In this document: positions 3,753 through 31,226 of the stretch, piece by piece | How positions within the stretch are numbered: the stretch's first letter is position 1 | Layout: the number at the start of each line of letters is the position of its first letter | Source: an uncultured Ignavibacteriota bacterium | Lineage (GTDB): Bacteria > Bacteroidota > Ignavibacteria > Palsa-1295 | Assembly: GCA_903900335.1 (NCBI GenBank) | Contig: CAIUMP010000057.1 | Location: 1 to 35,640 of the forward strand | Length of the DNA: 35,640 bases | Direction: 5' to 3' | Position numbers and translations under genes: made by a program | Notes under the pieces: model-generated | Databases searched by the model: none | What the model saw: the letters and a program-made list of their open reading frames with translations, nothing else | What the model was told of the DNA's origin: nothing

Positions 3753-4739
3753 TCACTCATGAATAACGGCTGATGTCGTGAATGGACGGTCCCCTGGTTT
3801 GGAGGAGCGATCACTCACTTGCGCAATGATTACACCAAGAATTATCAGCACTCCTCCCAACAATTCGGGAAAACCCATTCGTTCAGTGAGAAAAATTTCA
3901 GCAACGATCATGGCTACGACCGGCTCGAGCATATAAATGATAGCCGCTACACTCGGACTGACGTGGTTCTGGTACCGAGTCTGCAAGTATGCCGTGAAGA
4001 CGGTGGAGATCAACCCTGTGTACAACAGCGCTTCGATGGAGAAGGCCGTGAAGTGAACGTAGGGAGACTCCACCGGAAGGCATAGGAAGAAAAAGAGCGT
4101 GGAGGTCACCATCATGGTGCCGGTGACCATCATCGAGGCCTCGTGCTCAGCGGAAGTGCCATGGTCCACAAGCTCCAGCGCGTCCAGCATAGAACGGTCG
4201 ATCCAGATGATGAAGAGGCCGAACGAAATTGCACACGCTGTGGAGAGGATGTCCCCAACCACTACCCCTGAGGCACTAAACGGATGCGTCATCAGCAGAA
4301 TACCCGCCACCGTGATGAGCACCGCGATCGCTACATTACGCCGGAGCCTTTCGCGGCCCAGGAGAATTGCGAGGATGGGAGTCCAGATAACGGTTGTGGA
4401 GGTAAGGAAGGCAGATTTCGAGGTAGTGGTCGTTATCAGACCAATGTTCTGCAGGATATACCCAAGCCCCAGTGTTGCTCCGAGCACGAGCATATCCCTT
4501 CGGAACCGGCGCTCTGCGGCAGACTTTGGAAGGAAGACAAGCCTCACACCTTTCCGCGCCGATCTCGAAAATGCCAGGAATAACAGCGAGCAAAACCCAA
4601 ATCGAATAAGCGCGAAGGCTACTGGCGAAATATCCCGGAGCGAGTGCTGTACGACGGCGAATGTCGTCCCCCAAATGACGGGCAACGAAATCACGGCGGT
4701 CAGTGCAATGCTGCGAGAGTCTTTCTTGTTCTGGTTCAC
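3753..4739 (-). CDS. EamA/DMT-family membrane transporter
   Basis: The product is 328 aa and highly hydrophobic, with about ten predicted membrane helices in two EamA-type halves (about 12-150 and 160-310). Family hallmarks include WGTTFAVVQHSL and IRFGFCSLLFLAF in the first half, and a second half ending in a glycine-rich helix pair (LLGGVLIILGVIIAQV). The family exports or exchanges small metabolites across the inner membrane; the substrate cannot be told from sequence. The start is GTG at 4737-4739. The gene is divergent from the TPR/LuxR regulator and lies 6 bp upstream of the peptidase/barrel gene. The loop between the halves is longer than usual and acidic (residues about 185-205). Confidence 0.85.
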   Translation of the reverse strand: MNQNKKDSRSIALTAVISLPVIWGTTFAVVQHSLRDISPVAFALIRFGFCSLLFLAFSRSARKGVRLVFLPKSAAERRFRRDMLVLGATLGLGYILQNIGLITTTTSKSAFLTSTTVIWTPILAILLGRERLRRNVAIAVLITVAGILLMTHPFSASGVVVGDILSTACAISFGLFIIWIDRSMLDALELVDHGTSAEHEASMMVTGTMMVTSTLFFFLCLPVESPYVHFTAFSIEALLYTGLISTVFTAYLQTRYQNHVSPSVAAIIYMLEPVVAMIVAEIFLTERMGFPELLGGVLIILGVIIAQVSDRSSKPGDRPFTTSAVIHE

Positions 4740-8848: not shown

Positions 8849-8912
8849 TGGGGATCGGTAGGATTAACTCACCTTAACGACAACTCCCGCCCCCCTTCCG
8901 TTCTCCCATTTC

Positions 8913-8932: not shown

Positions 8933-8960
8933 CCTTCTAAAAAACCATTCCTCGTTCACA

Positions 8961-9008
8961 TCAGGCTATACCTTGATATTGCAAATCAAATATCAAGGTA
9001 TCACCTGA
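8961..9008 (-). terminator. Long imperfect palindrome just past the helicase stop
   Basis: A perfect 13-bp stem (8968-8980 with 8989-9001) has an 8-base loop. It extends through a two-base mismatch to a further 5 bp (TCAGG 8961-8965 with CCTGA 9004-9008). It begins within 6 bases of the helicase stop at 9014, so it probably ends or protects that transcript. It lacks an immediate T-tract; the first T-run on the minus strand is about 20 bases further on. It could instead be a mobile palindromic repeat. Confidence 0.5.
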
Positions 9009-9013
9009 TAACC

Positions 9014-10492: not shown

Positions 10493-10622
10493 GAGATTCA
10501 GTAAAATATTCTGGTGAGAAATGCTTGGTAATAAGAGCGGCCACGGAAAAGCGCATGGCTCTCGCAAGGGGCTGCTGAAGGTGCTCAGCAGGGTAGGCAA
10601 CAAAACTTGGGCCGTCTAAACT

Positions 10623-10635
10623 CCCTTAGTAAGGG
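10623..10635 (-). terminator. Small hairpin downstream of the 755-aa T9SS gene
   Basis: CCCTT-AGT-AAGGG lies 48 bases past the stop of the minus-strand gene ending at 10683. It has a 5-bp stem and three-base loop, the same design as the array at 130-479, and no strong T-tract. It may be a weak terminator or a solitary repeat unit. The rest of 10493-10682 shows nothing clear. Confidence 0.25.
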
Positions 10636-10682
10636 TTCATTGCCGCTGTTCGAAATCAGGGTCGAATTATCTGAAGGATATG

Positions 10683-12950: not shown

Positions 12951-13049
12951 GAGATGTGAATGCGACAAGAATATTTCATAGCTTTTCCAGCCTACGAACG
13001 ACCGAGCTATGGAGAACTTGCTACAAAGATACGGCGCAAATCCGGTGCG

Positions 13050-14861: not shown

Positions 14862-17128
14862 ATCTTGAAATAGAAACCATGATCCCAAAGGGTACACGGA
14901 CTACCGGTAAGATCACCGTATGTTCTCACAATGAACCAGTTGGTTATTGGGAGTACCATTAATCCATTCCAGGGTGCCGGTAGAGTTGGATTCAGTCCCG
15001 TGACAGTAACACTCCCACAGCTAAGACCTTGAAAGGCGGTCGTATCGTTCAAATTCGCATCCTCTTCTCTCCGGGTGACTGTTATAGAGGCATTCTTCAG
15101 TGTGTCAAAACCAGTGATTGGAGCTTTCAGAGTCAAGCAAACGATATAGACACCGACGTGCGGATGGAATATTTTTTGAACACCCACGTCTGCGGTCGCA
15201 TTGTATCCGATTGTGCTAAACAGGGATCCTGTCCCAGCAGGTATGTCTCCCCATGCTGTGATCGTGTTATCCTTGTAGGTCGAACCATAGAAGGGGGTAA
15301 TTTGGGGGCTTGTCGATGTGTTGTCGTTCTCTCCATATACCGTCATGTACCCCTTGTTCGCGAACGTCACTGCGTTGGAGCGGTGCAGGTCGTCCGTGCC
15401 ATTGCCAAAGATGCCCAGCGGATCGTCAGGATGCACTGGGCCGACCGCCATTGACGAACCCATCGGAACATTGTATCTTCCGGCGACGAACTGTGCGTAG
15501 CTCTGTGCATTCAACCCAATCCCACCGGGAATAGCGGAGTATTCGCCATTTGTGTCAACGCGGTTTTGCATCCCTCCTGCAATTGTGCTGTGTTCGACGT
15601 AAACAGTATTTAATTGCCCGCCTCCGACGACAGAACACCAACCGCTCCCAGCAATAGTGTTTAGAGACCCCCCGCCTATCGTCCCGTGCTGCCCATCTTC
15701 AAGAATTCTATTCCCCTCCCCTCCCGCAATGGTACAATAATACTCCTCAATGTCATTGCTTTTTCCTCCTCCTATGAAAGAGTTGTCTCCTTCGAACCTA
15801 ATCAAGTTTAGTGTGCCTCCTACGATTGCGGATTGGCTTGTGCTGTCTATGGCGTTAGAGAGACCTCCACCGATAACGCTGTGCTCCTGCCCAGACATCG
15901 TGAGGATGTGATTTAACTCACCTCCCGTAATGGTTCCGTATGGAGAATTAAGAGTATTTGAGGTACCACCTACGATAGCACTGAACGGTGCCACAATCGA
16001 GTTGCCTAATCCACCTCCAAGGAAGCTCCATTTCCCTCCTCCAATGTAATTATCCGAACCTCCAACCAAAACAGCAGTGTCCGAATTGTAATCAATAAGA
16101 TTATGTGATCCTCCGCCAAGGAATCCCGCGTGTGTATGGGCTGCGTTCGAAAAGCCACCTCCTACCGTGGTATAATTGCCATGCGAGGTATTCCCATGAC
16201 CGCCACCCAAAAACTGGTAGTATTGGCCATCGAGTATATTATTACTATCTCCCCCAACTATCGAGGAGTAGAGCGTTGAAGTACCGATGGTGTTGTTCCA
16301 CCCACCACCTATAAACCCTCGCGAGGACTCAACAGTGTTATAGCCACCGCCGACAACCGAACTCGACCAAGCGTTGTATGTGAGGTGGTTCGTCCATCCT
16401 CCTCCAATAACACCAAAGCTCGGATTGTCTTCAACATTGGCATACCCCCCTCCGATAAAATTATGATCGGCTCCGGTTGCGTTGATGTAATTACTATCTC
16501 CTCCGGAGATCGCGCAAAAAGGTCCTTGTACGAAGTTTCTCCAGCCTCCACTGATCGAAGAATAGTCCGCTCCTTCCACAATGGTGTTCACCTTCCCTCC
16601 TGCTATTACTGCGTAGCTCGCTGATGCGATCTTGTTGAATTGCCCACCAGCGATAACAGATTCACCGACTCCGGTTGTATCCCACCCTGTGTTCACTCCT
16701 TCGATCCGGTTCGAATCACCGCCTCCGATGAATGTTCCCAATTGTTCGGAGAAGTTATTCTTACCTCCAACAATAGATTCGAGGACATTGGTCAATTGAT
16801 TGTGTCTTCCGCCTGCAATAACACTTACTCCCTCGGTAACCAGATTTTCTAGACCGCCGCCTATGAAGCTCCCCGTATCGTCACCGTCAAGCGTTAGTGG
16901 GGACGCATCTGCGATTTGGTTGTCGCGCCCACCCGCGATCGCAGACAGCCGATTGGAAATGAAGTTATGCACTCCTCCGACGATACTTGACCCTCGGGCG
17001 CTGTCATATATCCAATTTCCTCCTCCGCCACCTATAAAACAAAGCGGTGCGTAGCTAAGAATGGTGTTATTCTTGCCGCCTACAATTGCGGAGCTGTCAG
17101 AACTGATAGTGTGCCCACTGCCTCCCAC
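14843..17128 (-). CDS. IGGG-N repeat surface protein, C-terminal part (downstream of in-frame stop)
   Basis: The product is 761 aa from GTG 17128. The frame is open back to TAA 17228-17230 and continues the same frame as the 258-aa ORF upstream, so the repeats begin about 35 codons earlier than this start. It holds about 32 repeats of 15-25 residues with consensus (F/A/S)I(G/V/A)GGxxNxI, such as FIGGGDSNRI, SIVGGDSNNI and TIAGGEGNRI. The last is SAIPGGIGLNA followed by FVAGRYNVPMGSS, the pattern of beta-helical or YadA-head-like stalks. The C-terminal about 190 residues (DPLGIFGNG onward) form a different, probably beta-rich domain. There is no T9SS sorting domain. Whether this part is translated is doubtful: no signal peptide and no ribosome binding site are apparent at 17128. 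Confidence 0.6.
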   Translation of the reverse strand: MGGSGHTISSDSSAIVGGKNNTILSYAPLCFIGGGGGNWIYDSARGSSIVGGVHNFISNRLSAIAGGRDNQIADASPLTLDGDDTGSFIGGGLENLVTEGVSVIAGGRHNQLTNVLESIVGGKNNFSEQLGTFIGGGDSNRIEGVNTGWDTTGVGESVIAGGQFNKIASASYAVIAGGKVNTIVEGADYSSISGGWRNFVQGPFCAISGGDSNYINATGADHNFIGGGYANVEDNPSFGVIGGGWTNHLTYNAWSSSVVGGGYNTVESSRGFIGGGWNNTIGTSTLYSSIVGGDSNNILDGQYYQFLGGGHGNTSHGNYTTVGGGFSNAAHTHAGFLGGGSHNLIDYNSDTAVLVGGSDNYIGGGKWSFLGGGLGNSIVAPFSAIVGGTSNTLNSPYGTITGGELNHILTMSGQEHSVIGGGLSNAIDSTSQSAIVGGTLNLIRFEGDNSFIGGGKSNDIEEYYCTIAGGEGNRILEDGQHGTIGGGSLNTIAGSGWCSVVGGGQLNTVYVEHSTIAGGMQNRVDTNGEYSAIPGGIGLNAQSYAQFVAGRYNVPMGSSMAVGPVHPDDPLGIFGNGTDDLHRSNAVTFANKGYMTVYGENDNTSTSPQITPFYGSTYKDNTITAWGDIPAGTGSLFSTIGYNATADVGVQKIFHPHVGVYIVCLTLKAPITGFDTLKNASITVTRREEDANLNDTTAFQGLSCGSVTVTGLNPTLPAPWNGLMVLPITNWFIVRTYGDLTGSPCTLWDHGFYFKICGRLH

Positions 17129-18378: not shown

Positions 18379-19116
18379 ATGCCACATTGGAATCGCGCGC
18401 TCGTTATCGGCGCTTCATCGGGAATCGGGAAGGCGCTGGCAGAACAGCTCCTGAAGGACGGCGCGTCCGTCGCTATGATCGCGCGGCGCAAAGAGCCACT
18501 GGATGAGATCGCGAGCAAAGCTCCATCCGGCAAAGCGTTCGTCTATCCGCACGATGTCACCGATTACGACACGACCGAGGCGCTCTTTCAGCAGATCACC
18601 AAAGATCTCGGCGGACTCGACCTCGTCATCTACAACTCTGGCGTGATGTTCGCGAGTGAGGAGAACGAGTTCAACTTAAAGAAAGACCGCGAGATGATCG
18701 AGGTCAATGTCACGGCGGCCTTCGCGTGGCTGAACGAGGCGGCTCGGCGCTTTCAGCAGACTAAGAGCGGTACGATCGTCGGGATTTCGTCCGTCGCTGG
18801 TGATCGCGGTCGCCGCGCAAACCCGGCGTATTGCACCACGAAGGCCGCGCTCACAACCTATCTCGAATCGCTGCGAAACCGACTCTCGAAATACGGCGTA
18901 AAAGTCGTCACGATCAAACCCGGATTTATCGACACCGAAATGACACGCGGCAAGCCCGGACTCTTCTGGCTTATCTCCGCCGACAAAGCCGCACAGATTA
19001 TTCTGAACGCCGCGCGCAAGGGAAAATCAACCGCGTATGTACCTGGCCGCTGGCGTTATGTATCGCTCATCCTGCGGCACATTCCGTCGTTCATCTTTAA
19101 GCATTTGCCTGTTTGA
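18379..19116 (+). CDS. dprE2: DprE2-like SDR: decaprenylphosphoryl-2-keto-ribose reductase homologue
   Basis: The product is 245 aa, a classical short-chain dehydrogenase with GASSGIG (11-17) for NAD(P), NSG (86-88), N110, S138, Y151 and K155 (YCTTK). It resembles mycobacterial DprE2 (Rv3791) beyond the general SDR core: GDRGRRANPAY precedes the active-site helix (GERVRRAN in DprE2), and the C-terminus RYVSLILRHIPSFIFKHLPV matches the DprE2 ending [20 protein letters not shown] as I remember it. It would reduce the 2-keto intermediate to polyprenyl-phospho-arabinofuranose. The stop TGA shares its A with the ATG of the DprE1-like gene, so the two are translationally coupled. The pairing makes the assignment much stronger than the SDR fold alone. 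Confidence 0.85.
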   Translation: MPHWNRALVIGASSGIGKALAEQLLKDGASVAMIARRKEPLDEIASKAPSGKAFVYPHDVTDYDTTEALFQQITKDLGGLDLVIYNSGVMFASEENEFNLKKDREMIEVNVTAAFAWLNEAARRFQQTKSGTIVGISSVAGDRGRRANPAYCTTKAALTTYLESLRNRLSKYGVKVVTIKPGFIDTEMTRGKPGLFWLISADKAAQIILNAARKGKSTAYVPGRWRYVSLILRHIPSFIFKHLPV

Positions 19117-20534
19117 TGGAAGAGAGTTTTGTCTTGCCTATCGAACGCCTCGAACCGCTGAAAGGCTGGGGCGGTGCTGTGGGTGCGGCGGCGTATGTCT
19201 ATCGCCCTTCGACGGGGGGTCAACTCAAGGAGGTGTTCGCAACCGCACGCGCGACGGGCCGCACGATCACCCTTCGCGGCGCTGGCCGAAGCTATGGCGA
19301 CGCATCGCTCGGACGCGAGAACATCGTGATCGAACTGACACGGATGAATCGCATTTTGGATTGGGATCCGGTGAGTGGCATCATCACATGCGAACCGGGC
19401 GTCACCATTGAGCAAGTATGGAGATATGTTATCGAAGATGGATACTGGCCACCAGTTGTGTCCGGCACGATGTATCCAACGCTTGGTGGTGTGCTTGGGA
19501 TGAACATTCACGGTAAGAACAACTTCGTCGCGGGGCCAATCGGCGAACATGTGTGTGCATTCACATTCCTTGCGGCATCAGGCGAAGAGCTTAGCGTTGG
19601 CCGCGAGACTGACCCAGATCTGTTCTACTCCATGATAGGAAGTTTCGGAATGTTCGGCGTCTTCACTTCCATCAAGATGAAGATGAAGAAGGTCTATTCC
19701 GGTGATCTTGATGTGAAGGTTTATACGTCGGATAATTTGCATGGGCTGTTCAAGATTTACGAAGAGCGCATTCCCGAGTCGGATTATCTCGTCGGATGGA
19801 TTGACGCATTTGCAAGCGGTGATAAACTCGGACGCGCCGTTGTACATCAAGCGAATTACCTGAAACCCGGCGTCGATCCAACGCCGAAGCAATCACTTCG
19901 CGCCGCGCATCAGGATTTGCCGGATACACTCTTCGGATTCATTCCGAAGTCCATCATGTGGATCTTCCTTCGTCCATTCACTAACAATGTCGGCTTCAAG
20001 CTTGTGAATTGGGCGAAGTTCTGGTCATCGAAGATCAGTCCGAAGAAGCAGATGCGACAGGCGCATGCGGCATTTGCGTTCTTGTTGGATTACGTTCCGA
20101 ACTGGAAGAAGTCCTATGGCAAAGGCGGACTCATTCAATTTCAATCGTTCATTCCGAAGGAGTCTGCAGAGGAGGCGTTTCGTGCGCAGTTCACTGTATG
20201 TCAAAGCGTGAACATGCCGCCGTATCTCGCTGTCTTCAAGCGTCACCGTCCCGACAAGTTCTTGATGACACACGCGGTCGATGGCTTTTCACTCGCACTT
20301 GATTTCAAAGTAACCCGAAAGAACCGCGCAAAGCTCTGGAAACTCACTGAACGTTTGAACCAGATCACGCTCGATGCTGGTGGCAGATTCTACATGGCGA
20401 AGGATGCTACGTTGACACGTGAGGCATTTCGGCAATATCTTGGTGAAGAGACGCTTGCGAAGTTTGCGGCACTGAAGAAGCGGTTTGATCCGGATAATGT
20501 TTTGGTCAGCGAACTCTCGAAACGGTTGCTATAG
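19116..20534 (+). CDS. dprE1: DprE1-like FAD-dependent decaprenylphosphoryl-ribose 2-oxidase
   Basis: The product is 472 aa from ATG 19116, the usual family length. The N-terminal PCMH-type FAD domain contains LRGAGRSYGDASLG (53-66) and NIHGKNN (130-136). The C-terminal substrate domain contains WIDAFASGDKLGRAVV (228-243), GLIQFQSFIP (338-347), LAVFK (371-375) and MAKDATL (427-433). These correspond to known M. tuberculosis DprE1 landmarks, including His132 and Lys418 (here H132 and K429). The residue at the position of the drug-reactive Cys387 is Ala394 (FSLALDF against NICVDF). It would oxidise C2 of polyprenyl-phospho-ribose, with DprE2 completing the epimerisation. It converges on the glycosyltransferase operon with 18 bp between stops. 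Confidence 0.88.
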   Translation: MEESFVLPIERLEPLKGWGGAVGAAAYVYRPSTGGQLKEVFATARATGRTITLRGAGRSYGDASLGRENIVIELTRMNRILDWDPVSGIITCEPGVTIEQVWRYVIEDGYWPPVVSGTMYPTLGGVLGMNIHGKNNFVAGPIGEHVCAFTFLAASGEELSVGRETDPDLFYSMIGSFGMFGVFTSIKMKMKKVYSGDLDVKVYTSDNLHGLFKIYEERIPESDYLVGWIDAFASGDKLGRAVVHQANYLKPGVDPTPKQSLRAAHQDLPDTLFGFIPKSIMWIFLRPFTNNVGFKLVNWAKFWSSKISPKKQMRQAHAAFAFLLDYVPNWKKSYGKGGLIQFQSFIPKESAEEAFRAQFTVCQSVNMPPYLAVFKRHRPDKFLMTHAVDGFSLALDFKVTRKNRAKLWKLTERLNQITLDAGGRFYMAKDATLTREAFRQYLGEETLAKFAALKKRFDPDNVLVSELSKRLL

Positions 20535-20552: not shown

Positions 20553-22253
20553 CTACGGTTTGACGAAGACGCGGTCTCGCCAACGAAGCACAAACGCGCT
20601 ATCTAATATCTTGAAGACATCGAGATACTCCGGCATCGGCAGCCGCTCCAGATGCACCTGACGACTGACCTCCGCAAAGTCCGAACGATCGTGACGCATT
20701 AGCAATAGCACAGGTCGCGAAGTGTGAATCGGAATGAGAGAATCATATAAATTGTCCCGGTGGAATTCCCGCGCGCGCCCGACTGCTAATGCGCCGGGAT
20801 GATTGAAATCGACTTCTATATCATACGTCGTCGCACGCGGCGTCAACAAATAGCACCAGCGCGACCACCACGAAGCGATGATGACTTGGTTCGAATCATC
20901 CGCGCCATTTGCAATAAGCACCCTCAGAGTTTCGTTGTTGATGTTATCGACAGCCTGAATGCCGGAGAGATTTGTGTATTCGAACGCACGGTTAGCAAGT
21001 GTGGCATACCGCTCGCGCGAACTGGATAGGCGATTGAGCGCACCATGGACGAAGGAGTTGCGCGTGTTTTCGTTGTTGTATCGCGCTTGGCTTGTTCCGG
21101 GCCAGGGGATGAAGAACCAGAGGCAATTCGCAATCGCTGTAAAGCTGGTCAGCACAATCACATTGCGCGTAATGATGGGTCGAGTTAGGCGCAGCTTGTT
21201 CTCTGGCTTTCGCTTGGTGCGTTCGGCGAGCCAGATTGCTGCTTGATCGGTCAGAACCGCCACGATAAGAATGGCGCTTGGTACTACATTTAGCAAATAT
21301 CCCGCCTTCATGAAGAAGATCGTGAAATAGAACAGCAGTGCGGGTACCGGAAGCATCACGACATACAGAGCTTTGGCATTGACTGCATACTGTTTCACAA
21401 ACCGAACAACTCTACCAGGAAACACAGCGAGGATTAGGAGACACATGACCATTGCCGCTCCCATCCCCATTGGCAGATTGAACGCCACCTTCGCAATCAG
21501 ATCCCACTGGCTCTGCCAGCTATTGCCGAAAAGCACAGACTGCGTTTTGAAGTTGATCTCGTGTTTGGCAAACTCAAGATACGTTGCGAGGCCTCCGGAT
21601 TCGCGGAGAAGTTCTCCAAGCCAAAGAGCTGTCGTTGCAATGAATGCCAAACTCGCAAGCACGAGATGCTTCCCTCGGATGCGGCTCTTCCATAAGACAT
21701 AGACAGTCGCTGGCAGAAAAAACACGAGATCGTTTTGTCTCGCGGCTCCTGCGAGAGAGAGCAGAAGCAGAAGGAAATATGCAATGAACGTGTTGTCTTG
21801 TTGCCTCAGCAGCTTAAGTCCTGCATAGAGCATTGCGGAAGCAAAGAACGCCTCATGTGCGTAGATTGCCGCCACCTCTCCGTGAAACCAGAAGAGCGGT
21901 GTTGTCAGCCATACAATTGCGGCAATGATCGCAACACGCTCGCCTCGAAGCTGCGCAGCTGCGCGCCATAGGAACAGAACGGCTCCAATCGAGAGAAGGA
22001 GGCTAACCCAAATAAGTCCGCTATTGATGTCGCCAGTAATCCACGAGAGCAATCGCCCGGGCAGGATATGCAGTATATACCCTGGCATTTGCGGCGTTAC
22101 TTCGCGGAGATCGAAGCGGAATGTGGCGACGGCGAAGTTGATCGAATCGAATTCGAAGAACGTCTTCGCGCGAAATGGCAAGCGTGTTGCAAGCGTCGCG
22201 AGAGCGAGCGCAACGCCGGTAAGTGACCGTAATCTTCGCGCGTTAAGAGCCAT
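20553..22253 (-). CDS. GT-C-type polytopic membrane glycosyltransferase
   Basis: The product is 566 aa, with about ten membrane helices in residues 10-400 and a C-terminal soluble domain of about 165 residues. The first periplasmic loop has acidic residues (FFEFDSINFAVATFRFD), as expected for the catalytic loop of GT-C enzymes that use polyprenyl-phosphate sugars. HGEVAAIYAHEAFFASAML and GAARQNDLVFFLP resemble ArnT/PMT-like (GT39/GT83) proteins. Donor and acceptor cannot be read from sequence. Its start overlaps the AftB-like gene by 11 bp, so it belongs to the same operon and may use polyprenyl-phospho-arabinose. It could equally use another lipid-linked sugar. Confidence 0.7.
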   Translation of the reverse strand: MALNARRLRSLTGVALALATLATRLPFRAKTFFEFDSINFAVATFRFDLREVTPQMPGYILHILPGRLLSWITGDINSGLIWVSLLLSIGAVLFLWRAAAQLRGERVAIIAAIVWLTTPLFWFHGEVAAIYAHEAFFASAMLYAGLKLLRQQDNTFIAYFLLLLLSLAGAARQNDLVFFLPATVYVLWKSRIRGKHLVLASLAFIATTALWLGELLRESGGLATYLEFAKHEINFKTQSVLFGNSWQSQWDLIAKVAFNLPMGMGAAMVMCLLILAVFPGRVVRFVKQYAVNAKALYVVMLPVPALLFYFTIFFMKAGYLLNVVPSAILIVAVLTDQAAIWLAERTKRKPENKLRLTRPIITRNVIVLTSFTAIANCLWFFIPWPGTSQARYNNENTRNSFVHGALNRLSSSRERYATLANRAFEYTNLSGIQAVDNINNETLRVLIANGADDSNQVIIASWWSRWCYLLTPRATTYDIEVDFNHPGALAVGRAREFHRDNLYDSLIPIHTSRPVLLLMRHDRSDFAEVSRQVHLERLPMPEYLDVFKILDSAFVLRWRDRVFVKP

Positions 22254-23772
22254 GCTCCGCCTCCTTCACCCGATAGATGCTTAGAATGGTGTCGGCTGAT
22301 GAAGCCAAAGGCAATCGCACTCGAAACTGCGCTTGGAGCAGCAACGAATCGTGATGATGCGAGAAGAACGTAGGGTTGAGTCGATTATAGATCACAAATA
22401 GAGTAGCCCGAGCGCTACGTGCTGCTTCCCAGACCGAATCCTGATTGCTGTGAAGGGACCAGATGCTTGGCGATACGAGACCGGTGAGATCGATAACCGG
22501 ATGACCCAGATAATAACCGATCGCGCCGACATCATCCACGGCAAGAATATCAGTGGGTCGCATGTTCGTTCGAAGCCAGTCGACGGCCGCCAAGTGCTGG
22601 TCATTAATATTCCGAACGGATTCTGCTGCGATAAGCGACCAGCGCCCCGTCTCCATCGCGCCGGCGAACAGAAGTGCGAACGCAATACCTGTACGCCATC
22701 GTGTGAGATGGGTCAGCCGCTGTTCAAACGCACTCCATCCAGAGACTCCCAGTATGATGATGAGCGGGAACACGGAGAAGAAATATCTTCCATGATGACG
22801 GAATTGGGGTGCGACGAACGACTGAAGAATCGGCAATCCAACGGCGATAACGAACACGAACGTCGTGTTGTCCTTTTTCCAGGATGCAAAGAGCCCGGCA
22901 GCCGCCAACCCGAACAACACAACATTGTTGCTGGCAATCACTTTGATAGCAAACCACAAATAGTTGATGTTGGGAAGGATCGAAATGTGTGCACCTTGAA
23001 CGAGACTGGAGTGGGACATGAAATGATCCTGTGTGACCATCGGAAGCAGCAGAGCCGGGGATGCAATTGCGAGGAGCAGACATCCAACCATCGGTACATT
23101 TCGCGTGTCGGTTTGCTTTCGAATGCCGACCCACAGCCAGTCCAAGGCACAGACGACTGCCACAAAGACGAACTCCGGTCTAGCCAGTAGGCCAAGACCG
23201 AGCCACACAGCCTCGCGACCACGAAGAATGTTTCGTTGACGGGATCGCATGTGCTCCTCAACAGTTAGTAACATTAGTAGCGCCGATAGTGCCGTTTCCA
23301 TGCCACTCATGCCGCTCCAGGCAAGGCGGGAGCAAAGCACAGCGGCCCAGCCAGCGATCCGGGCATGCGACTCCGAAAGGCCGAAGACATCTCGAGAAGC
23401 GCGGTAGACTCCTGGGGCAATAATAAGGTAGCTAAGAATGGAAAGGGTTATAGCGATTAGCTCAAGTCTGCTTGTGAACAGGCCTCCAATCGCGATCAGA
23501 GATACCCACAACGGTGATGTATCAGCCGTCAGCGTCTCCCCGGGATTGAACGAGAAGCTATATCCGTGCAGGAGATTGCTCGCATACTGGCAATGGATAT
23601 AGACATCATCAAGCGGCACTCCAACGAGAGAAACATAATTGACCGTGGGAGGTGTGCCACTCTGAAGCATCAGGAATTGAGTAGCACCAAAACAGATCAT
23701 GGTGAGAACTCCTCCGAGAACCAGAAAAGCCTCGATACGGTATCGACGAAAGAGGGTTGCGATGCTTTGCAC
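22243..23772 (-). CDS. AftB-like GT-C arabinofuranosyltransferase homologue
   Basis: The product is 509 aa and polytopic. The first loop, VPLDDVYIHCQYASNLLHGY (52-71), then FNPGET and TSPLWV, matches the pattern of mycobacterial AftB (Rv3805c) and relatives (DDAYI...RYA.NL..G....FNPGE...T.PLW). The acidic pair D55-D56 is the expected catalytic position. The C-terminal soluble domain has DDVGAIGYYLG then VIDLTGLVSP (413-435), also typical. AftB transfers arabinofuranose from decaprenyl-phospho-arabinose to arabinan ends. The start is GTG 23772, 3 bp after the UbiA-like stop, the same neighbour relationship as Rv3805c-Rv3806c in mycobacteria. Family membership is fairly firm; the sugar and acceptor are inferred. 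Confidence 0.72.
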   Translation of the reverse strand: MQSIATLFRRYRIEAFLVLGGVLTMICFGATQFLMLQSGTPPTVNYVSLVGVPLDDVYIHCQYASNLLHGYSFSFNPGETLTADTSPLWVSLIAIGGLFTSRLELIAITLSILSYLIIAPGVYRASRDVFGLSESHARIAGWAAVLCSRLAWSGMSGMETALSALLMLLTVEEHMRSRQRNILRGREAVWLGLGLLARPEFVFVAVVCALDWLWVGIRKQTDTRNVPMVGCLLLAIASPALLLPMVTQDHFMSHSSLVQGAHISILPNINYLWFAIKVIASNNVVLFGLAAAGLFASWKKDNTTFVFVIAVGLPILQSFVAPQFRHHGRYFFSVFPLIIILGVSGWSAFEQRLTHLTRWRTGIAFALLFAGAMETGRWSLIAAESVRNINDQHLAAVDWLRTNMRPTDILAVDDVGAIGYYLGHPVIDLTGLVSPSIWSLHSNQDSVWEAARSARATLFVIYNRLNPTFFSHHHDSLLLQAQFRVRLPLASSADTILSIYRVKEAEHGS

Positions 23773-23775
23773 CGC

Positions 23776-24666
23776 TTACTTCATATAAATGATCGTGAAC
23801 ATCGCAAGAGCGTAGGCGATGAAATTGAGAATCATCGGGACATCCGAAAGTACCACTTCGGTGGGGTTCTCGCCGAGGTTCTTCTGGTGCAGAAGATAGA
23901 GATAGCGAAAGACACCATAAAGAACGAAAGGGGTTGTGAGGATAAGATTCTCCGTGCCAAACATCTTCACCGTTCGCTCGGAGACGGTGTAAAGCGCGTA
24001 GCTAAAGACGAAACCGCCCGCGCAGATCGTTAGCATCTGCTCGACGAACGCCACGGAGTAGTGCTCCAACACTTTGCGTGTATCAAAACTTTTGCCGTCT
24101 GAATCCTTCGTGCTAAGCGCGACGAGTTCGCTTCGCCGCTTCGCAACTCCCAAGAATAGCGAGAGAAACATCGTGGTCAGCAGAAGCCATGAGCTTCGCG
24201 GAACATCCAGCACGAATGCCCCGCCTATGACTCTCAGCATGAAGCCAATCGCGATCACAAATACATCAATGAGCACAAGGTGCTTCAGATAAAAGCTGTA
24301 GGCAAGGTTCATCGCGAGATAGACCGCGAGACATGCCGTGAAACGAACATCGAGACCAGCCACGATGCCCGCAACAATTGCGATCAATACTACTGCGATC
24401 AACGATGCTTGGGTGATCGAGATTTCGCCCGAGGCGATAGGGCGTAACCGCTTCTTGGGATGCGCGCGGTCGCGCTCGCGATCGGCCATATCGTTGACAA
24501 CATAGACGAAGCTCGCCATGAAGCTAAACGCGAAGAAGCCTCTGAGTGAAAGCAACACGAAACTGGGATCGAGCAAGTGCTGCGAAAATACCAGCGCCGT
24601 GAAGACGAAGAGATTCTTCGTCCACTGTTTGGGACGGATAAGGCGAAGAACGGCGCTGGGTGACAT
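23776..24666 (-). CDS. ubiA: UbiA-family polyprenyl-phosphate phosphoribosyltransferase (DPPR synthase-like)
   Basis: The product is 296 aa from ATG 24666; GTG 24699 would add 11 unlikely residues and overlap the upstream gene. It is a polytopic UbiA prenyltransferase fold. LRLIRPKQWTKNLFVF opens the first helix. NDMADRERD (58-66) is the Mg-diphosphate NDxxDxxxD site, followed by HPKKRLRPIASG. The second acidic loop, normally DxxxD, is less obvious. RPKQW..N and HPKKR.RPIASG are characteristic of the decaprenyl-phosphate 5-phosphoribosyltransferase branch (Rv3806c), which puts phosphoribose from PRPP onto polyprenyl phosphate, rather than the quinone branch. With DprE1 and DprE2 in the same neighbourhood this is the committed step. 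The intermediate phosphatase was not seen here. Confidence 0.85.
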   Translation of the reverse strand: MSPSAVLRLIRPKQWTKNLFVFTALVFSQHLLDPSFVLLSLRGFFAFSFMASFVYVVNDMADRERDRAHPKKRLRPIASGEISITQASLIAVVLIAIVAGIVAGLDVRFTACLAVYLAMNLAYSFYLKHLVLIDVFVIAIGFMLRVIGGAFVLDVPRSSWLLLTTMFLSLFLGVAKRRSELVALSTKDSDGKSFDTRKVLEHYSVAFVEQMLTICAGGFVFSYALYTVSERTVKMFGTENLILTTPFVLYGVFRYLYLLHQKNLGENPTEVVLSDVPMILNFIAYALAMFTIIYMK

Positions 24667-24679
24667 TATGCGGTTGGTG

Positions 24680-26374
24680 TTATCGTGTTCCCTTAACACC
24701 TCTTCGGTAACGACCTATTCCCGAACAGAGCATCATTCCCAAAAGCGTCAAACCCGAGATCCAATAACCGGCCCGTTCCTGCCAACTCTTCTGTAATCTC
24801 CACTCGGCCGTGTACTTTCCGCTTGGTAAATCTGCGACCATGCGACCGATCGAATCTGGCCACACCTTCAACTGCGAATCCGGTACGTACAAGTGCCAGG
24901 CAGGCCAATAGGATCGGTGGAATGTCACCCGATGGGGTTGCGTGAAATTCAGGTCCAAAGTTTGCGATGTTGCGAGTCGTGGGTGTGCGAGAAAAGATTC
25001 ACTGGGAGTAATATTCCCCCAAGGAAGCAGCTCCGGCTCCGATGCGTGTCTGTCCACCAAGTCTTCGAGTGTTGCTGAAACAACGAACTTCGTGAAGACC
25101 GACGCATATTCCGGTGCGTCGAAGTTGGGTCTCCCATCAAAGTGCTTACTTGGGTGGATATGCAGCATCACGAGGAAGATCGGGTAGATCGAGCCGAGAG
25201 CCCAAATGGTAGCAACGAACGTCATCGCGCGCTGCATGAACGTGTGTCTGGCAACGGCAACAAGGATCGAAACGAGAATGACCACATCAATATAGAATCG
25301 CCATCCCCCTTGAATCAGATCAAATCCGGGCACGTGCTCCCATATCGGAAGACTTACTACCGGGATCTGAAGGAAGACGATCGCGGAACAGATCATCGCC
25401 GCCACGCGGATTCCCCGTGACTCTTGAGGAGAAAGGGACTTCATGTCTGAGAGCCATCGGACGGTGAGAAACCCAACGGCACCGATACCGATGTAGATAA
25501 GGCCAATATGATATAGTGCACCGAGGTCTCGCCCATGTAAGAATAGATCAATAAAGTAGCCCGGATCCCTCGATTGGCCGTTTACCAACCAGACCTGTTC
25601 CAAATGGGAATAGGATCGGTATTGAAATATGGGAATCAAGAAAAATGCTACAAGTAGAATGGATAGCACTCCCCCAAAAATCACGTCGCGGATAAGACGC
25701 CAACGTAGCTTTTCCCATTGCGCCAACCCGCCGAGCACCATCGTGACCACGGTGAGAACCGTCAAGGGAATATTTGACAAGCATATCAAGGCGCATGAAA
25801 CCGCCAGGAGGATAATCCCCTTCTGCCGTGAGTTGGAATCGGATTCGTGCAGAAGTAGAATCGCGTACCAAACGAGAGGGAAGAACGCGTAGCCGAAATG
25901 GGCGGATCCAGATCTGTTGTACAACTCAGCAATTCGGAAGGGAGCGAAGGCAAAAAGCGCTGCGCCCACCATTGCCTGCCACCGCGACGCGGAGATGTGA
26001 TCGAGCAGTAGTTTTGCTGAGAAGTAGCTGCCTATGGTTGCCAGAAGTCCGGTAAGCTGAAAGAGTTGACTCGCATCGCTAATACCCGTGAGCATTTGAA
26101 CAATAGCGCTCTCATAGAACATCATCGGGGGGTAAAAGTAGAGCGCTGGTGCCCCGAGTCCTCCAAACGAGTCGTTGATCCAATGCGGAAAAAGGATTCC
26201 GCTCTTTAGCATTAGCCAGAAGCGTGAATTCCACCAGATCAAGTGTGAGGCATCAACGCCATCCGTCTTTGCAAAGAAGGGCGCAATCAGTTGCAGGAGT
26301 ATGACAAGCCCGAGTAGGATTTGAAGGCCACGTGAGAGCCTGAATGGATGGGATCTATGCGGGTGAGACAACAT
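24680..26374 (-). CDS. PTPS-related (PF10131-type) GT-C-like membrane protein, paralogue B
   Basis: The product is 564 aa from ATG 26374 (TTG 26386 would add four residues). It has about 11-12 membrane helices and an extracytoplasmic C-terminal domain. The first loop, DGVDASHLIWWNSRFW, leads to ILFPHWINDSFGGLGAP and LYFYPPMMFYE, the signature of the membrane family labelled '6-pyruvoyl-tetrahydropterin synthase related' but built like GT-C glycosyltransferases. FAFAPFRIAELYNRSGSAHF is also typical. It overlaps the next gene upstream by 20 bp and is clearly paralogous to it. Enzymatic activity is not proven for the family; the operon suggests sugar transfer onto an envelope glycan or protein. 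Confidence 0.72.
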   Translation of the reverse strand: MLSHPHRSHPFRLSRGLQILLGLVILLQLIAPFFAKTDGVDASHLIWWNSRFWLMLKSGILFPHWINDSFGGLGAPALYFYPPMMFYESAIVQMLTGISDASQLFQLTGLLATIGSYFSAKLLLDHISASRWQAMVGAALFAFAPFRIAELYNRSGSAHFGYAFFPLVWYAILLLHESDSNSRQKGIILLAVSCALICLSNIPLTVLTVVTMVLGGLAQWEKLRWRLIRDVIFGGVLSILLVAFFLIPIFQYRSYSHLEQVWLVNGQSRDPGYFIDLFLHGRDLGALYHIGLIYIGIGAVGFLTVRWLSDMKSLSPQESRGIRVAAMICSAIVFLQIPVVSLPIWEHVPGFDLIQGGWRFYIDVVILVSILVAVARHTFMQRAMTFVATIWALGSIYPIFLVMLHIHPSKHFDGRPNFDAPEYASVFTKFVVSATLEDLVDRHASEPELLPWGNITPSESFLAHPRLATSQTLDLNFTQPHRVTFHRSYWPAWHLYVPDSQLKVWPDSIGRMVADLPSGKYTAEWRLQKSWQERAGYWISGLTLLGMMLCSGIGRYRRGVKGTR

Positions 26375-28046
26375 TCTTCTTTCCAATCCTGCCCGTCAGA
26401 AGCAGCAACATCAAACTTATACCCGAGATCCAAAAGCCCGTCGTCTCGATCGATGCTCGTTCGAGATGAATGGATAGCCTGTGCGCTCCGACGCCTACAG
26501 CGACCACGGCTCGTCCGATGCTATCCGTTGCGGATTCGACCCTGCTTCCGTCAAGATCGAGCTTCCATTCGGGCCATGCAAATTGGTGTAACGTGACGAG
26601 GTGAGGTTTCCTCACTTCGAGAGCGTACTCTTTTGTCAAAGCGCCGCTTTTCAGGAGCCGTGTACTTTCCGCATCACCAAACTCGGGGGTTGCTAAAAGG
26701 AATTCGTCATGAAGGTGCGGAAGGAATGCCTTCTGTACGGCCGATTCTACATGGAGATTGGAGACGGGAAGGTACTCCGCAGAATCCATCCACACACTTG
26801 CTCCATGCGGATGGAGCCGAACACTAAAGAGCACCAACAGAGAGAGTCCCACCGCGGACCATGACCAGATGGCTCCAAGTCGGGTTGCGAACACTTTCCA
26901 CTGTTCCCCGGCGCGAACGCTACCGACCAACAGAGAGACGAGCAGTACAGAGAAGATACCAAAACGTATATGGAATTGTACGATCTTGAAAGGGGGCAGG
27001 TAAGACCAGATTGGAAGATTGAGATAGGGAATTTCAATCATCAAGAAGAATAGGACTACTAATCCAACGATCATTGTAGCTTGAGTTCGATCTCCGCTTC
27101 TTCGAAGCCTCCACCACAAAACAAGAATTGCCGCGTGGGTGCAAAAGATGATCAGTGCCTGGACAACAAACGTCAGCTCACTGCGCGACAGTAATGCGGG
27201 TAGCCAATTGCCTGGATCTCGCTGGTGCCCGCCGGGATTCCAATAGGTTGTAGATTGGATGAATTGTTGAAAGTGAAGAGCAGGAAGGTAATGATAGAGC
27301 GATAGTGCAGTCCCGAGCGCAACACCGAAGGCTGCGCTAACCAGCGTCATCCAACGCAGTGATTTCCAACCGAGCGCAACGATCACTACTATCAGGATCG
27401 CCATTGCAACGGCAAGCGGGAGTGACGTCAAAAGCAAACATGCCCAGGATAAGGCAAGCGTGATGCTTGGGCGAAGTCCCCGCTTCGGATCCAAGCACTC
27501 TACAAGCCCCGCGATCACCAACGGCACAAAAATGAACGCCATGGGTTGCGATAGAGAGCTTCGGGTGTAGAGGTCAAATAGGCGATAGGGCGCGAACGCA
27601 TAGAGGAGACTTCCTAAGACGGCATCCCTCTTGGAGCCGTCCAGCTTGCGCAAAAGGTAGTAACATGCAGCGCCACTTGCGACTGTCGAGAAAAGACCGG
27701 CGATATTATAGACTGTCTCCGGGCGCAAGATGCCGGTCAGCCCAATGATCGATGAGGTGACATAGTAGGTCAGAGGAGGATAGAAGTAGAATGTGGGCGC
27801 CCCTAAACCATGGAAGCCATCCGGCAGCCACGTTGGTACAAGAATTCCCTGACGAAGCAGATCGAAAAAGGCCGTGATCCAGTGCAGATGCGTCGTTGCA
27901 TCATCCCCATCAACGGGGGCGAAGAACGGGATGATGAGGCCAAGGAGGGTCGAGAGGGAGATGCCGACGATGAAGGCCTGCCGAAACCGCTGTTCCACTG
28001 GCCGCCTGGGGATCTCCGATGCCGAACGTTGTAGGCCTCGTTTCAC
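26355..28046 (-). CDS. PTPS-related (PF10131-type) GT-C-like membrane protein, paralogue A
   Basis: The product is 563 aa from GTG 28046. The same architecture and motifs occur as in its downstream neighbour: DGDDATTHLHWITAFFD, ILVPTWLPDGFHGLGAP, FYFYPPLTYY, YAFAPYRLFDLYTRSSLSQP, and a final extracytoplasmic domain followed by a C-terminal helix and basic tail. It is the first gene of the five-gene overlapping run. It lies 47 bp after the methylmalonyl-CoA mutase gene on the same strand, so read-through from there is possible. Tandem duplication followed by divergence suggests the two act on different acceptors or linkages, but this is inference. Confidence 0.72.
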   Translation of the reverse strand: MKRGLQRSASEIPRRPVEQRFRQAFIVGISLSTLLGLIIPFFAPVDGDDATTHLHWITAFFDLLRQGILVPTWLPDGFHGLGAPTFYFYPPLTYYVTSSIIGLTGILRPETVYNIAGLFSTVASGAACYYLLRKLDGSKRDAVLGSLLYAFAPYRLFDLYTRSSLSQPMAFIFVPLVIAGLVECLDPKRGLRPSITLALSWACLLLTSLPLAVAMAILIVVIVALGWKSLRWMTLVSAAFGVALGTALSLYHYLPALHFQQFIQSTTYWNPGGHQRDPGNWLPALLSRSELTFVVQALIIFCTHAAILVLWWRLRRSGDRTQATMIVGLVVLFFLMIEIPYLNLPIWSYLPPFKIVQFHIRFGIFSVLLVSLLVGSVRAGEQWKVFATRLGAIWSWSAVGLSLLVLFSVRLHPHGASVWMDSAEYLPVSNLHVESAVQKAFLPHLHDEFLLATPEFGDAESTRLLKSGALTKEYALEVRKPHLVTLHQFAWPEWKLDLDGSRVESATDSIGRAVVAVGVGAHRLSIHLERASIETTGFWISGISLMLLLLTGRIGKKNVVSPA

Positions 28047-28093: not shown

Positions 28094-29851
28094 CTAGAAT
28101 ACTACCGACTCCACATACTCCCCGAACGGCACTTTCAGCGTGTCGATCATCTCACCGAGCGTCACGTAATTCCGCGCAGCCTTGATGAGCACGGGCATCA
28201 GGTTCGTGTGCCCGAATCCCGCTGCCTGAATTTCCGCGATCGACTCCGCAACATCATGAGCCGAGCGATTCGCCTTCACCTCCGCGAGCTTCCGCTTCTG
28301 CGCACGCTCGACCTCTGCCGAGATTTGCAGAATCGGAATCGTGATCTTCTCGTCCTTTTCGACAAACTCATTGATACCAACGATAAACTTCTCCTTGCGG
28401 TCCAACTCGATCTGATAGCGATACGCCGCGTCAGCAATTTCGCGTTGGAAGAATCCAGCTTCAATCGCCGGAATCACTCCACCCAATGCATCGATCTGAT
28501 CGAAGTAGGTATTGGCTTCGCGTTCGAGACGATCAGTTTCGGACTCGACGAAGTACGATCCGCCTAATGGATCGACAGTATTGATTACGCCGATCTCATA
28601 CGCAATGATCTGCTGCGTTCGAAGTGCGATCTTCACAGCCTTCTCGCTCGGCAATGCGAGCGTTTCATCCATCGAATTTGTGTGGAGGGATTGCGTACCA
28701 CCAAGCACTGCCGCGAGAGCTTCGTAAGCAGTGCGCACAATATTATTCTCCGGCTGCTGCGCTGTGAGCGAGCATCCCGCCGTCTGCGTATGGAATCTGA
28801 GCGCAAGCGACTTCGCCGACTTCGCGCCATACTTCTCCTTCATCCGACGCGCCCAGATTCTGCGCGCCGCACGGAGCTTTGCAATCTCCTCGAAGAAATC
28901 AATATGCGAATTGAAGAAGAAGGAAATACGCGGAGCAAACGAATCCACATCCATTCCACGCGCGATGCAATGCTCGACATACGTGAACCCATCGGCAAGC
29001 GTAAAGGCCAACTCCTGCGCGGCGGTCGAACCGGCCTCGCGAATATGATAACCGGAGACCGACACCGGATTCCACTGCGGCACCTCGGCGGTGCAATACT
29101 CGATCATATCCGTGATGATCCGCATCGACGGCTCCGGCGGATAGATGAACTCCTTCTGCGCGATATACTCTTTCAGAATATCGTTTTGCAGCGTGCCCTG
29201 AAGCTTGTCAAACGCCACGCCCTGCTTCTCGGCAACGCAGAGATAGTAGGCAAAGATCATCGCCGCCGGCGAATTGATGGTCATCGAAGTCGAGACCTTA
29301 TCGAGCGGAATACCGGCGAAGAGAGTCTCCATATCTTTCAGCGACGAAATCGCTACGCCGCAAATCCCGACCTCGCCCTCGCTCCACGCATCGTCGGCAT
29401 CGCGGCCCATGAGCGTCGGCAAATCGAACGCGGTCGAAAGGCCGGTCTGACCATGCGCGAGCAGATACTTGAACCGCTCGTTCGTATCCTCCGGCGTACC
29501 GAACCCGGCGAACTGCCGCATCGTCCAGACCTTGCCGCGATACCCGTTCGGATGAATCCCGCGCGTATATGGAAACTGCCCCGGAAAACCCACATTCTCG
29601 ACAAAATCGGCCGGATCATTCGCGTGGCTGGTGCCGACCCCGGCACCAGGACCATAGAGAATATCGAGCGGCTTGCCGGAAAGCGTCGTGTACTTCATCC
29701 CGGTCGTCTTCGCCGTTTCGGCCTTCGACTTCCACAGCCTGAGCGCCTCCTGATACTCGAAACTTTCCTCGAATTTCGTCGCAGCACCGTTCGTCAGACT
29801 GCCCAGCAGATCCGCTCCTAATAATTCACCCTTCTCATTTACTTCCGGCAT
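28094..29851 (-). CDS. Methylmalonyl-CoA mutase-type acyl-CoA mutase, large (catalytic) subunit
   Basis: The product is 585 aa. It covers the complete TIM-barrel substrate domain of the B12-dependent acyl-CoA mutase family: [74 protein letters not shown], and [17 protein letters not shown]. There is no C-terminal cobalamin-binding domain (no DxHxxG), so it needs a separate small subunit that is not in this window. This is the split arrangement with a large subunit of the 'acyl-CoA mutase large subunit' type. It interconverts methylmalonyl-CoA and succinyl-CoA or a related pair. AAGGGAGAA lies just upstream of ATG 29851 as a good ribosome binding site. Confidence 0.9.
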
Positions 29852-30042: not shown

Positions 30043-31206
30043 ATGAACACAATTAGCTTCTCGACGGCTATTGCCCGTCGTTATATTGACCCGCTTACCT
30101 CAACTGATTCCGACATCCGCATCGAGCACCACCTGTTGCTCTGCGAGGCCAAAGGCATCCCGGCGGATATCCCAACCGACCCAAACCCCCGAGAACAAAA
30201 TATCGATCGCGGAATTTACAAGGATGTTCAGAAGAGCCTTCTTGATGCTCAAGATCTAAGTTTTCACCTCAAGAATAAGGGTATTACTATAATCGCCAAG
30301 TCGGTTACACTTGACGAAAAGAAAGAACGAGCCATCGTGGAATTCGAGCCGGGTGATGGTATTGTTGACGGAGGCCATACTTATAACATCCTTGTCAAAA
30401 ATCTGGCGGATTGTCCAGAGCATCAGTTCGTTAAATTCGAAATACTTACGGGAGTACCCCGATACCTTGTTGAATCGATTGCTCAAGGGCTGAACACTTC
30501 CGTGCAAGTCACGAAGATGAGCCTCGATAATCTTGGAAAGCGATTCGAGTGGATTAAGGAGATACTCGACAAGAAGGTGTATGGCAGCAAGATTGCGTAC
30601 AAGCAAAACGCCGAAGGTGACTACACGGTGCGGGACATCGTAAGTTTTCTCACGCTATTCAATATCGATCTATTCCCCGAGGGTATGGAGTATCCTAAGA
30701 TCGCATATACGAGCAAGGAGGAATGTTTGAAGCGGTATGAAAAGAATACGGAAAGTTACCGCAAATTGGCACCAATACTCCCGGACATTCTCGACCTAAG
30801 CGACCAGATTCAGCTTCGAGGAAGGGATTTATACAATAAGAAGTACGCCGGTAGAGGGGGTGGGCTTGCATTCTATCAAAGCAGAAAACGCGGGAAGTAC
30901 CAATTCGTTTTTAGCGCAGAGGAAGCTGCATACAAGCTTTATGACGGCGCTCTGTTTCCTATTCTCGGCGCATTTCGTTATCTGGTTGAGGAACACGAGG
31001 GAGCATTTCGGTGGAAATTAGGCGCATACTCAAAAGTTCTCGCACTCCTCGATAAGATCGGCGGTGACATGATTAACGCGACGAAGAATACGAGCGATAG
31101 TAGGGGAAAGAACCCCACTCTCATTGGTAAGGACGACTCTCACTGGGAAAACCTATATAAAACCGTCGCCCTCGCCTACCTTGAAGGTAAATTGCTTGGC
31201 TCATAA
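30043..31206 (+). CDS. AIPR-family (abortive infection phage resistance) protein
   Basis: The product is 387 aa. The central motif LKNKGITIIAKSV (76-88) followed by EPGDGIVDGGHTYNIL (102-117) is the AIPR-family hallmark, usually 'N.GITI.A' then 'IVNG.QT'. Here it reads VDGGHT, a variant also reminiscent of the DGQHR motif of DndB-like proteins. The rest is predicted alpha/beta with charged helices; there is no membrane segment and no obvious PD-(D/E)XK nuclease. AIPR proteins occur in phage-defence and restriction neighbourhoods, and their biochemistry is poorly known. The GHKL ATPase gene follows after 20 bp, so they form an operon. At 387 aa it is shorter than many AIPR proteins of 500-700 aa. 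Confidence 0.72.
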   Translation: MNTISFSTAIARRYIDPLTSTDSDIRIEHHLLLCEAKGIPADIPTDPNPREQNIDRGIYKDVQKSLLDAQDLSFHLKNKGITIIAKSVTLDEKKERAIVEFEPGDGIVDGGHTYNILVKNLADCPEHQFVKFEILTGVPRYLVESIAQGLNTSVQVTKMSLDNLGKRFEWIKEILDKKVYGSKIAYKQNAEGDYTVRDIVSFLTLFNIDLFPEGMEYPKIAYTSKEECLKRYEKNTESYRKLAPILPDILDLSDQIQLRGRDLYNKKYAGRGGGLAFYQSRKRGKYQFVFSAEEAAYKLYDGALFPILGAFRYLVEEHEGAFRWKLGAYSKVLALLDKIGGDMINATKNTSDSRGKNPTLIGKDDSHWENLYKTVALAYLEGKLLGS

Positions 31207-31226
31207 CAAATTGTGAAGAGGTAAAT

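What the first reader, a model, noticed from the sequence alone, without database searches (positions are those of the whole stretch)
22243..24666. AftB-UbiA neighbour order conserved with mycobacteria
The AftB-like gene starts 3 bp after the UbiA-like stop on the same strand. As I recall, Rv3805c (aftB) and Rv3806c (ubiA) are also adjacent in mycobacteria. The loop VPLDDVYIHCQYASNLLHGY followed by FNPGET matches the AftB first-loop pattern. Shared order over such distance suggests either transfer as a unit or strong functional coupling.
Basis: partly seen in the sequence, partly recalled or inferred. Interest (0 to 1): 0.6.

Follow-up and report, generated by a model that had tools for sequence, protein, structure and literature searches.

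The report
Lipid-linked pentose transfer operon, not AftB
A bacterium related to Kapabacteria carries side-by-side genes that probably make a lipid-bound five-carbon sugar and attach it to something on the cell surface; the gene order resembles that of mycobacteria but involves a different transferase, so it is a new variant of a known kind of pathway, not an inherited mycobacterial unit.

Summary
In detail: UbiA (23776-24666, -) is followed after 3 bp by a 509-aa membrane glycosyltransferase (22243-23772, -). The same order holds in all 13 genomes of the family and, as recalled, in mycobacteria. The AftB label fails. The curated AftB model gives 20.6 bits (cut-off 1050), and glycosyltransferases of related genomes not linked to UbiA score higher (up to 41). 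In a tree of 85 GT-C proteins AftB is the most distant group, and an AU test rejects a Kapabacteria+AftB clade (p 0.001). The 'first-loop pattern' marks a broad superfamily.

UbiA itself passes the phosphoribosyltransferase model and keeps nearly all substrate residues of Rv3806c. DprE2 and DprE1 homologues lie close by (18379-20534). In Ignavibacteria the related locus reads GT-C, UbiA, EamA transporter; EamA follows in 19 of 19 loci with enough downstream DNA. The only own-genome homologue of such a transporter is in this window (3753-4739).

Best reading: a three-component lipid-phosphate-pentofuranose system (donor synthase, flippase, GT-C), as Kelly 2024 described for Citrobacter, with an EamA-type flippase and another GT-C lineage. 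UbiA and GT-C co-inherit within the phylum; no mycobacterial transfer is indicated.

The parts
23776..24666 (-). UbiA-superfamily polyprenyl-phosphate phosphoribosyltransferase (donor synthase), 296 aa from the ATG at 24666
   Evidence: NF008977 273 bits, cut-off 234; Rv3806c 8j8j E 1.1e-34 with R22, K28, Y70, N73, D77, K87, R90, Y138, K143 kept, Q135 to N, Y157 to F
22243..23772 (-). 509-aa GT-C glycosyltransferase, starts 3 bp after the UbiA stop
   Evidence: AlphaFold model pLDDT 86.6, GT-CA fold; invariant D56, R198, R329 match AftB D62, R221, R372; NF041481 only 20.6 of 1050 bits
20553..22253 (-). 566-aa second GT-C-like protein (PMT_2/TMEM260-like), overlaps the end of the 509-aa gene; third in the Kapabacterial operon
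   Evidence: PMT_2 28.9 bits; downstream of the GT-C in all ten named relatives and in G007
18379..19116 (+). DprE2-like SDR (2-keto-pentose reductase of the epimerisation step)
   Evidence: best PDB hit DprE2 21gq_C E 1.8e-29, full length; NF053786 157 bits, cut-off 250
19113..20534 (+). DprE1-like FAD oxidase (ribose to arabinose epimerisation), overlaps DprE2
   Evidence: PDB DprE1 4aut E 7.7e-50 over 15-472; NF053785 258 bits, cut-off 500
3753..4739 (-). EamA transporter, flippase candidate
   Evidence: EamA 106 bits; only own-genome match to the EamA that directly follows UbiA in family f8; homologues directly follow UbiA in Ignavibacteria
24680..26386 (-). 568-aa membrane protein upstream of UbiA, GT-C-like, lineage-variable
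   Evidence: no Pfam match; present or absent among relatives
26355..28046 (-). 563-aa membrane protein, paralogue of the 568-aa one, GT-C-like
   Evidence: PTPS_related 20.0 bits and WsfD 20.2 bits, both below cut-off
28094..29851 (-). methylmalonyl-CoA mutase large subunit; conserved neighbour of UbiA in the class, role here unknown
   Evidence: PF01642 712 bits; next to UbiA or the GT-C in many relatives

Best explanation
The locus is a three-component lipid-phosphate-pentofuranose glycosylation system. UbiA transfers 5-phosphoribose from PRPP to polyprenyl phosphate (family membership and substrate residues shown). An unlinked phosphatase removes the 5-phosphate (inferred, not identified). 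DprE1 and DprE2 convert the ribose to D-arabinofuranose on the lipid (homology shown, activity inferred). An EamA-type transporter flips the lipid-sugar (inferred from gene order in relatives). The 509-aa GT-C, and perhaps the coupled 566-aa one, transfers the pentofuranose to an extracytoplasmic glycan or protein (fold and catalytic residues shown, donor and acceptor inferred). The GT-C is not AftB. UbiA is ancestral to the class; a GT-C from a broad superfamily sits beside it, upstream in Ignavibacteria and downstream in Kapabacteria. The likeness to the mycobacterial order is parallel clustering of partners, or at most a very ancient association that is no longer traceable.
For: UbiA passes the phosphoribosyltransferase model and keeps Rv3806c substrate residues. 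Pair in 13 of 13 family genomes. GT-C, UbiA and EamA adjacent in 19 of 19 Ignavibacteria loci with downstream DNA, the component set of PMC11127046. DprE1/E2 homologues within 2 kb of the GT-C, DprE1 found in 12 of 13 family genomes. UbiA and GT-C trees congruent. Relatives of the GT-C in Pseudonocardiaceae lie beside DprE2-DprE1. GT-CA fold with the essential Asp and two Arg of AftB kept.
Against: No phosphatase in the cluster; nine PAP2 matches elsewhere in the genome. EamA is 19 kb from UbiA in the window. Many class genomes have UbiA without a strong DprE1 match, so the sugar may be ribose there. DprE1 and DprE2 score below NCBIfam equivalog cut-offs. No donor or acceptor was measured.
Confidence: 0.7

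Rival explanations
1. Orthologous AftB-UbiA pair, inherited from a common ancestor with mycobacteria or transferred as a unit, adding terminal beta-(1->2)-arabinofuranose to an arabinan.
For: Same order and strand as in mycobacteria; AftB is the only PDB sequence hit of the family profile; catalytic residues kept.
Against: NF041481 20.6 of 1050 bits while GT-Cs not linked to UbiA reach 41; AftB most distant group in the tree, AU p 0.001; profile score 80 to AftB against 388 and 325 to GT-Cs not linked to UbiA; UbiA groups with its own class; no Emb arabinan polymerase in the genome.
Confidence: 0.04
2. The GT-C uses another polyprenyl-phosphate sugar (mannose, glucose, aminoarabinose) and sits beside UbiA only because both belong to envelope glycan synthesis.
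For: GT-CA fold alone does not tell the donor: Pmt4, OST and ArnT match as well as or better than AftB. Other lipid-P-sugar synthases were not looked for systematically in the genome.
Against: Tree congruence and adjacency in Kapabacteria, Ignavibacteria and Omnitrophota; no other lipid-sugar synthase found in the operon.
Confidence: 0.2
3. UbiA is an ordinary prenyltransferase (quinone or lipid head group), and the pathway reading is wrong.
For: UbiA is near-core in the class and often next to methylmalonyl-CoA mutase, an unexpected partner.
Against: NF008977 above cut-off, prenyltransferase models far below; K/R pyrophosphate cluster and K28 of Rv3806c kept.
Confidence: 0.06

Closest known systems
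Three-component pentofuranose system of Citrobacter youngae O1/O2 (Kelly 2024, PMC11127046; GT136)
   Same: Polyprenyl phosphoribose synthase, flippase and GT-C encoded together; epimerases (DprE1/E2 for Araf) diversify the sugar.
   Different: EamA transporter instead of MATE; no PRP phosphatase domain fused to the synthase; another GT-C lineage with a DD motif; membership of GT136 not tested.
Mycobacterial Rv3806c-Rv3805c (UbiA-AftB) and DprE1/DprE2
   Same: Order UbiA then GT-C on one strand; same synthase family; DprE1/E2 homologues; catalytic Asp and two Arg of AftB have invariant counterparts.
   Different: GT-C not orthologous to AftB; no Emb polymerases; no GtrA-family match; UbiA in a separate clade.
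LA_3751/LA_3752 family putative glycosyltransferases (NF047440)
   Same: Best NCBIfam match of the UbiA-linked GT-Cs tested from Ignavibacteria and Omnitrophota and of the Dojkabacteria relative, up to 78 bits.
   Different: All below the 200-bit cut-off; the family is described only as putative glycosyltransferase.
PLDD-type GT-C beside DprE2-DprE1 in Prauserella and Amycolatopsis
   Same: Same first-loop motif, lipid-pentose genes next to it.
   Different: Separate clade with a longer C-terminus; UbiA several kb away.

Membership tests
AftB, terminal beta-(1->2)-arabinofuranosyltransferase (NF041481) | curated equivalog score of 1050 bits over the 633-position model | tested here: not met
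   20.6 bits over positions 29-89 only
AftB | falls in the AftB clade | tested here: not met
   separate long branch; Kapabacteria+AftB clade rejected, AU p 0.001; long branches are a caveat
AftB | catalytic D62, R221, R372 | tested here: met
   D56 and R198 align directly, R329 through an intermediate profile; not specific, equivalents also seen in GT-Cs not linked to UbiA
AftB | retaining transfer of Araf to arabinan termini | not testable with these tools
   no Emb homologue in the genome makes an arabinan acceptor unlikely
Polyprenyl-phosphate phosphoribosyltransferase (NF008977, Rv3806c type) | score above curated cut-off 234 | tested here: met
   273 bits
Polyprenyl-phosphate phosphoribosyltransferase (NF008977, Rv3806c type) | PRPP and Mg2+ residues of Rv3806c | tested here: met
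   9 of 11 identical; Y157F also occurs in mycobacteria; Q135N differs
GT-CA fold glycosyltransferase | fold with periplasmic loop carrying Asp after TM1 | tested here: met
   Foldseek AglB, AftB, ArnT E 2e-6 to 7e-6; VIA Z 19.3 for AftB 9dlh over 420 residues and 23-25 for AglB, OST and Pmt4
Three-component pentofuranose system | synthase, flippase and GT-C encoded together | tested here: met
   GT-C, UbiA and EamA adjacent in 19 of 19 Ignavibacteria loci; in the window EamA is on the same contig 19 kb away
Three-component pentofuranose system | phosphatase for the 5-phosphate | tested here: inconclusive
   nine unlinked PAP2 matches, none assigned
GT136 | sequence relation to C. youngae ORF12 | not tested
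   ORF12 sequence was not on hand
DprE1 (NF053785) and DprE2 (NF053786) equivalogs | scores above 500 and 250 bits | tested here: not met
   258 and 157 bits; best PDB hits are nevertheless DprE1 and DprE2 over full length

The most novel reading that the evidence does not exclude
A whole class of Bacteroidota keeps a polyprenyl-phosphate-ribose synthase as a near-core gene and builds, in Ignavibacteria and Kapabacteria, a three-component pentofuranose system with a new GT family and an EamA-family flippase, so that an undescribed pentofuranose-containing envelope glycan or glycoprotein is general in this group.
Probability: 0.4. Interest if true: 0.6.

Novelty: new variant of a known kind. 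Interest (0 to 1): 0.4.

Why it matters
If true, it extends the lipid-phosphate-pentofuranose pathway, known from mycobacteria and some O antigens, to a large group of mostly uncultured bacteria, names an EamA-type flippase candidate for a step whose transporter lacks direct proof in the characterised systems (PMC11127046), and supplies a GT-C family whose donor can be tested with existing farnesyl-phosphate substrates. It also warns that AftB annotation by first-loop motif or by neighbour order is unsafe.

Tried and rejected
Direct phmmer of the 509-aa protein against PDB gave nothing; only the family profile reached AftB. Structure comparison does not single out AftB: Pmt4, OST and AglB score as high or higher. 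The idea of a mycobacterial transfer was dropped because UbiA and GT-C both group inside the phylum. A GtrA-type flippase was sought and not found; Emb arabinosyltransferase was sought and not found. The second GT (566 aa) shows no profile relation to the 509-aa one. A literature search for this locus type in Kapabacteria or Ignavibacteria listed no paper describing it.

Full report
OBSERVATION. On the minus strand UbiA ends with TAA at 23778-23776; three bases follow, then the GTG start of a 509-aa ORF at 23772. The ATG at 24666 is the better UbiA start. The 566-aa ORF begins inside the end of the 509-aa gene. Pfam gives UbiA for the first and nothing for the second. NCBIfam gives decaprenyl-phosphate phosphoribosyltransferase (273 bits, cut-off 234) for UbiA, and only a 20.6-bit fragment of the AftB model (cut-off 1050) for the 509-aa protein.

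WHAT ELSE IS THERE. On the plus strand, 2 kb from the end of the 509-aa gene, DprE2-like and DprE1-like genes overlap at 18379-20534. Three signature steps of the mycobacterial decaprenyl-phosphate-arabinose pathway (synthase, oxidase, reductase) are thus in the window, which the finding did not say. The DprE1-like protein keeps the His of IHGKN and the Lys of the AKD motif, but has Ala where M. tuberculosis DprE1 has the Cys targeted by benzothiazinones (alignment; residue roles from my own knowledge).

WHOSE GENOME. The genome is a 4.0-Mb assembly in 62 contigs. Its named nearest relatives are MAGs labelled Candidatus Kapaibacterium, Ignavibacteriae and Bacteroidetes, so it is a Kapabacteria-like member of the Bacteroidota group.

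CONSERVATION OF THE PAIR. UbiA then GT-C, same strand, is found in 13 of 13 genomes of the family, followed by the 566-aa GT-C in all eleven loci checked. DprE1 is in 12 of 13; the one without it is a 67% complete genome. In 22 Ignavibacteria loci the GT-C relative is upstream of UbiA, not downstream, nearly always behind a methylmalonyl-CoA mutase gene. In three Omnitrophota-type loci it is downstream. In other families of the class UbiA occurs without the GT-C, often directly behind the mutase. So UbiA is probably the older resident.

AFTB OR NOT. But four tests speak against orthology. First, two GT-Cs of other class genomes that are not linked to UbiA score 41 and 25 bits against the AftB model, more than the window's protein. 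Second, profile comparison gives 80 to AftB, but 388 and 325 to two groups of such unlinked GT-Cs, and one of those is closer to AftB (113) than the window's family is. Third, in a tree of 85 GT-Cs AftB stands on its own long branch; the mean path from the window is 7.7 to AftB, 3.6 to the Ignavibacteria group, 5.0 to the set of class GT-Cs chosen as not linked to UbiA (three of which fall inside the Ignavibacteria clade) and 5.8 to the Pseudonocardiaceae group. Fourth, holding Kapabacteria and AftB together costs 43 log units, p-AU 0.001; the tool warns that long branches weaken such tests. The motif PLDDVYIHxxYA...FNPG also occurs, in the same or close form, in Chloroflexi, actinomycetes and Thorarchaeota, so it is no AftB signature.

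WHAT THE GT-C KEEPS. The model (pLDDT 86.6) has the GT-CA fold; solved matches include AglB, AftB and ArnT, with Pmt4 and OST on the second look. Of the AftB residues reported as essential (D62, R221, R372; PMC12041299), D56 and R198 align directly. R329 corresponds to R372 by two profile alignments through an intermediate family. Equivalents of these residues are also present in the GT-Cs not linked to UbiA, so they support GT-C chemistry, not AftB identity. Whether the enzyme retains or inverts cannot be told.

THE DONOR SIDE. Rv3806c residues for PRPP and lipid phosphate (PMC10994848) are kept in UbiA: R22, K28, Y70, N73, D77, K87, R90, Y138, K143; Q135 is Asn, Y157 is Phe. In the UbiA tree the window groups with its class and is separated from mycobacterial and Pseudonocardiaceae UbiA by a branch of 3.7. 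For 29 organisms with both proteins, 13 of 26 splits are shared by the UbiA and GT-C trees (shuffled mean 0.19, maximum 3); path lengths correlate at 0.86. This is co-inheritance inside the phylum, without sign of a recent transfer from actinobacteria.

THE FLIPPASE. In Ignavibacteria the gene directly behind UbiA encodes an EamA transporter in 19 of 19 GT-C-UbiA loci that have enough downstream DNA; it is also there, or one gene further, in several families without the GT-C. Searching the window's genome with one such EamA finds a single homologue, in this same window at 3753-4739; in relative G009 the homologue lies just behind the DprE1-DprE2 genes. Synthase, flippase and GT-C together are the set that Kelly et al. 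2024 (PMC11127046) defined in Citrobacter, where the flippase is a MATE protein and DprE1/E2 homologues mark arabinose. That paper's main text does not mention EamA or Bacteroidota.

VERDICT. The adjacency is genuine and probably functional, but it is not a conserved AftB-UbiA unit. It is a lineage-specific version of the three-component pentofuranose pathway. Shown: genes, families, order, trees. Inferred: donor, sugar identity (arabinofuranose where DprE1/E2 exist, perhaps ribofuranose elsewhere), flippase, acceptor. The phosphatase is missing from the picture (nine unlinked PAP2 matches).

Noticed in passing
window 28094-29851 and L159, L164, L165, L170, L171, L173, L179, L180, L183, L184: A methylmalonyl-CoA mutase large-subunit gene is a recurrent upstream neighbour of UbiA across the class, also where no GT-C is linked; no functional reason is known.
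   Followed up: partly
L162, L168, L174, L178, L182: Five class genomes hold a different, very divergent UbiA in an apparent UbiA-DprE1-DprE2 operon, separate from the class-wide UbiA lineage.
   Followed up: partly
L090, L095, L100, L102, L111, L113 and others: In Prauserella and Amycolatopsis a PLDD-type GT-C that is not AftB stands convergent to DprE2-DprE1, a possible unrecognised pentofuranosyltransferase of Pseudonocardiaceae.
   Followed up: partly
L158, L176, L177, L181: A DUF362 protein directly follows UbiA in families f2 and f3.
   Followed up: no
window 19113-20534: The DprE1-like protein has Ala at the position of the benzothiazinone-reactive Cys of M. tuberculosis DprE1.
   Followed up: no
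window 24680-28046: Two adjacent paralogous 563-568-aa membrane proteins (GT-C-like, weak PTPS_related/WsfD match) between the mutase and UbiA; their number varies among relatives.
   Followed up: no
window 30043-34815: An AIPR-domain protein, an 814-aa protein without family and a DNA methylase look like a restriction or defence island; PADLOC matches only the methylase.
   Followed up: partly
window 6776-17128: Several large BNR-repeat or beta-propeller-like proteins, three of them with type IX-style C-terminal sorting domains, lie in a row.
   Followed up: no
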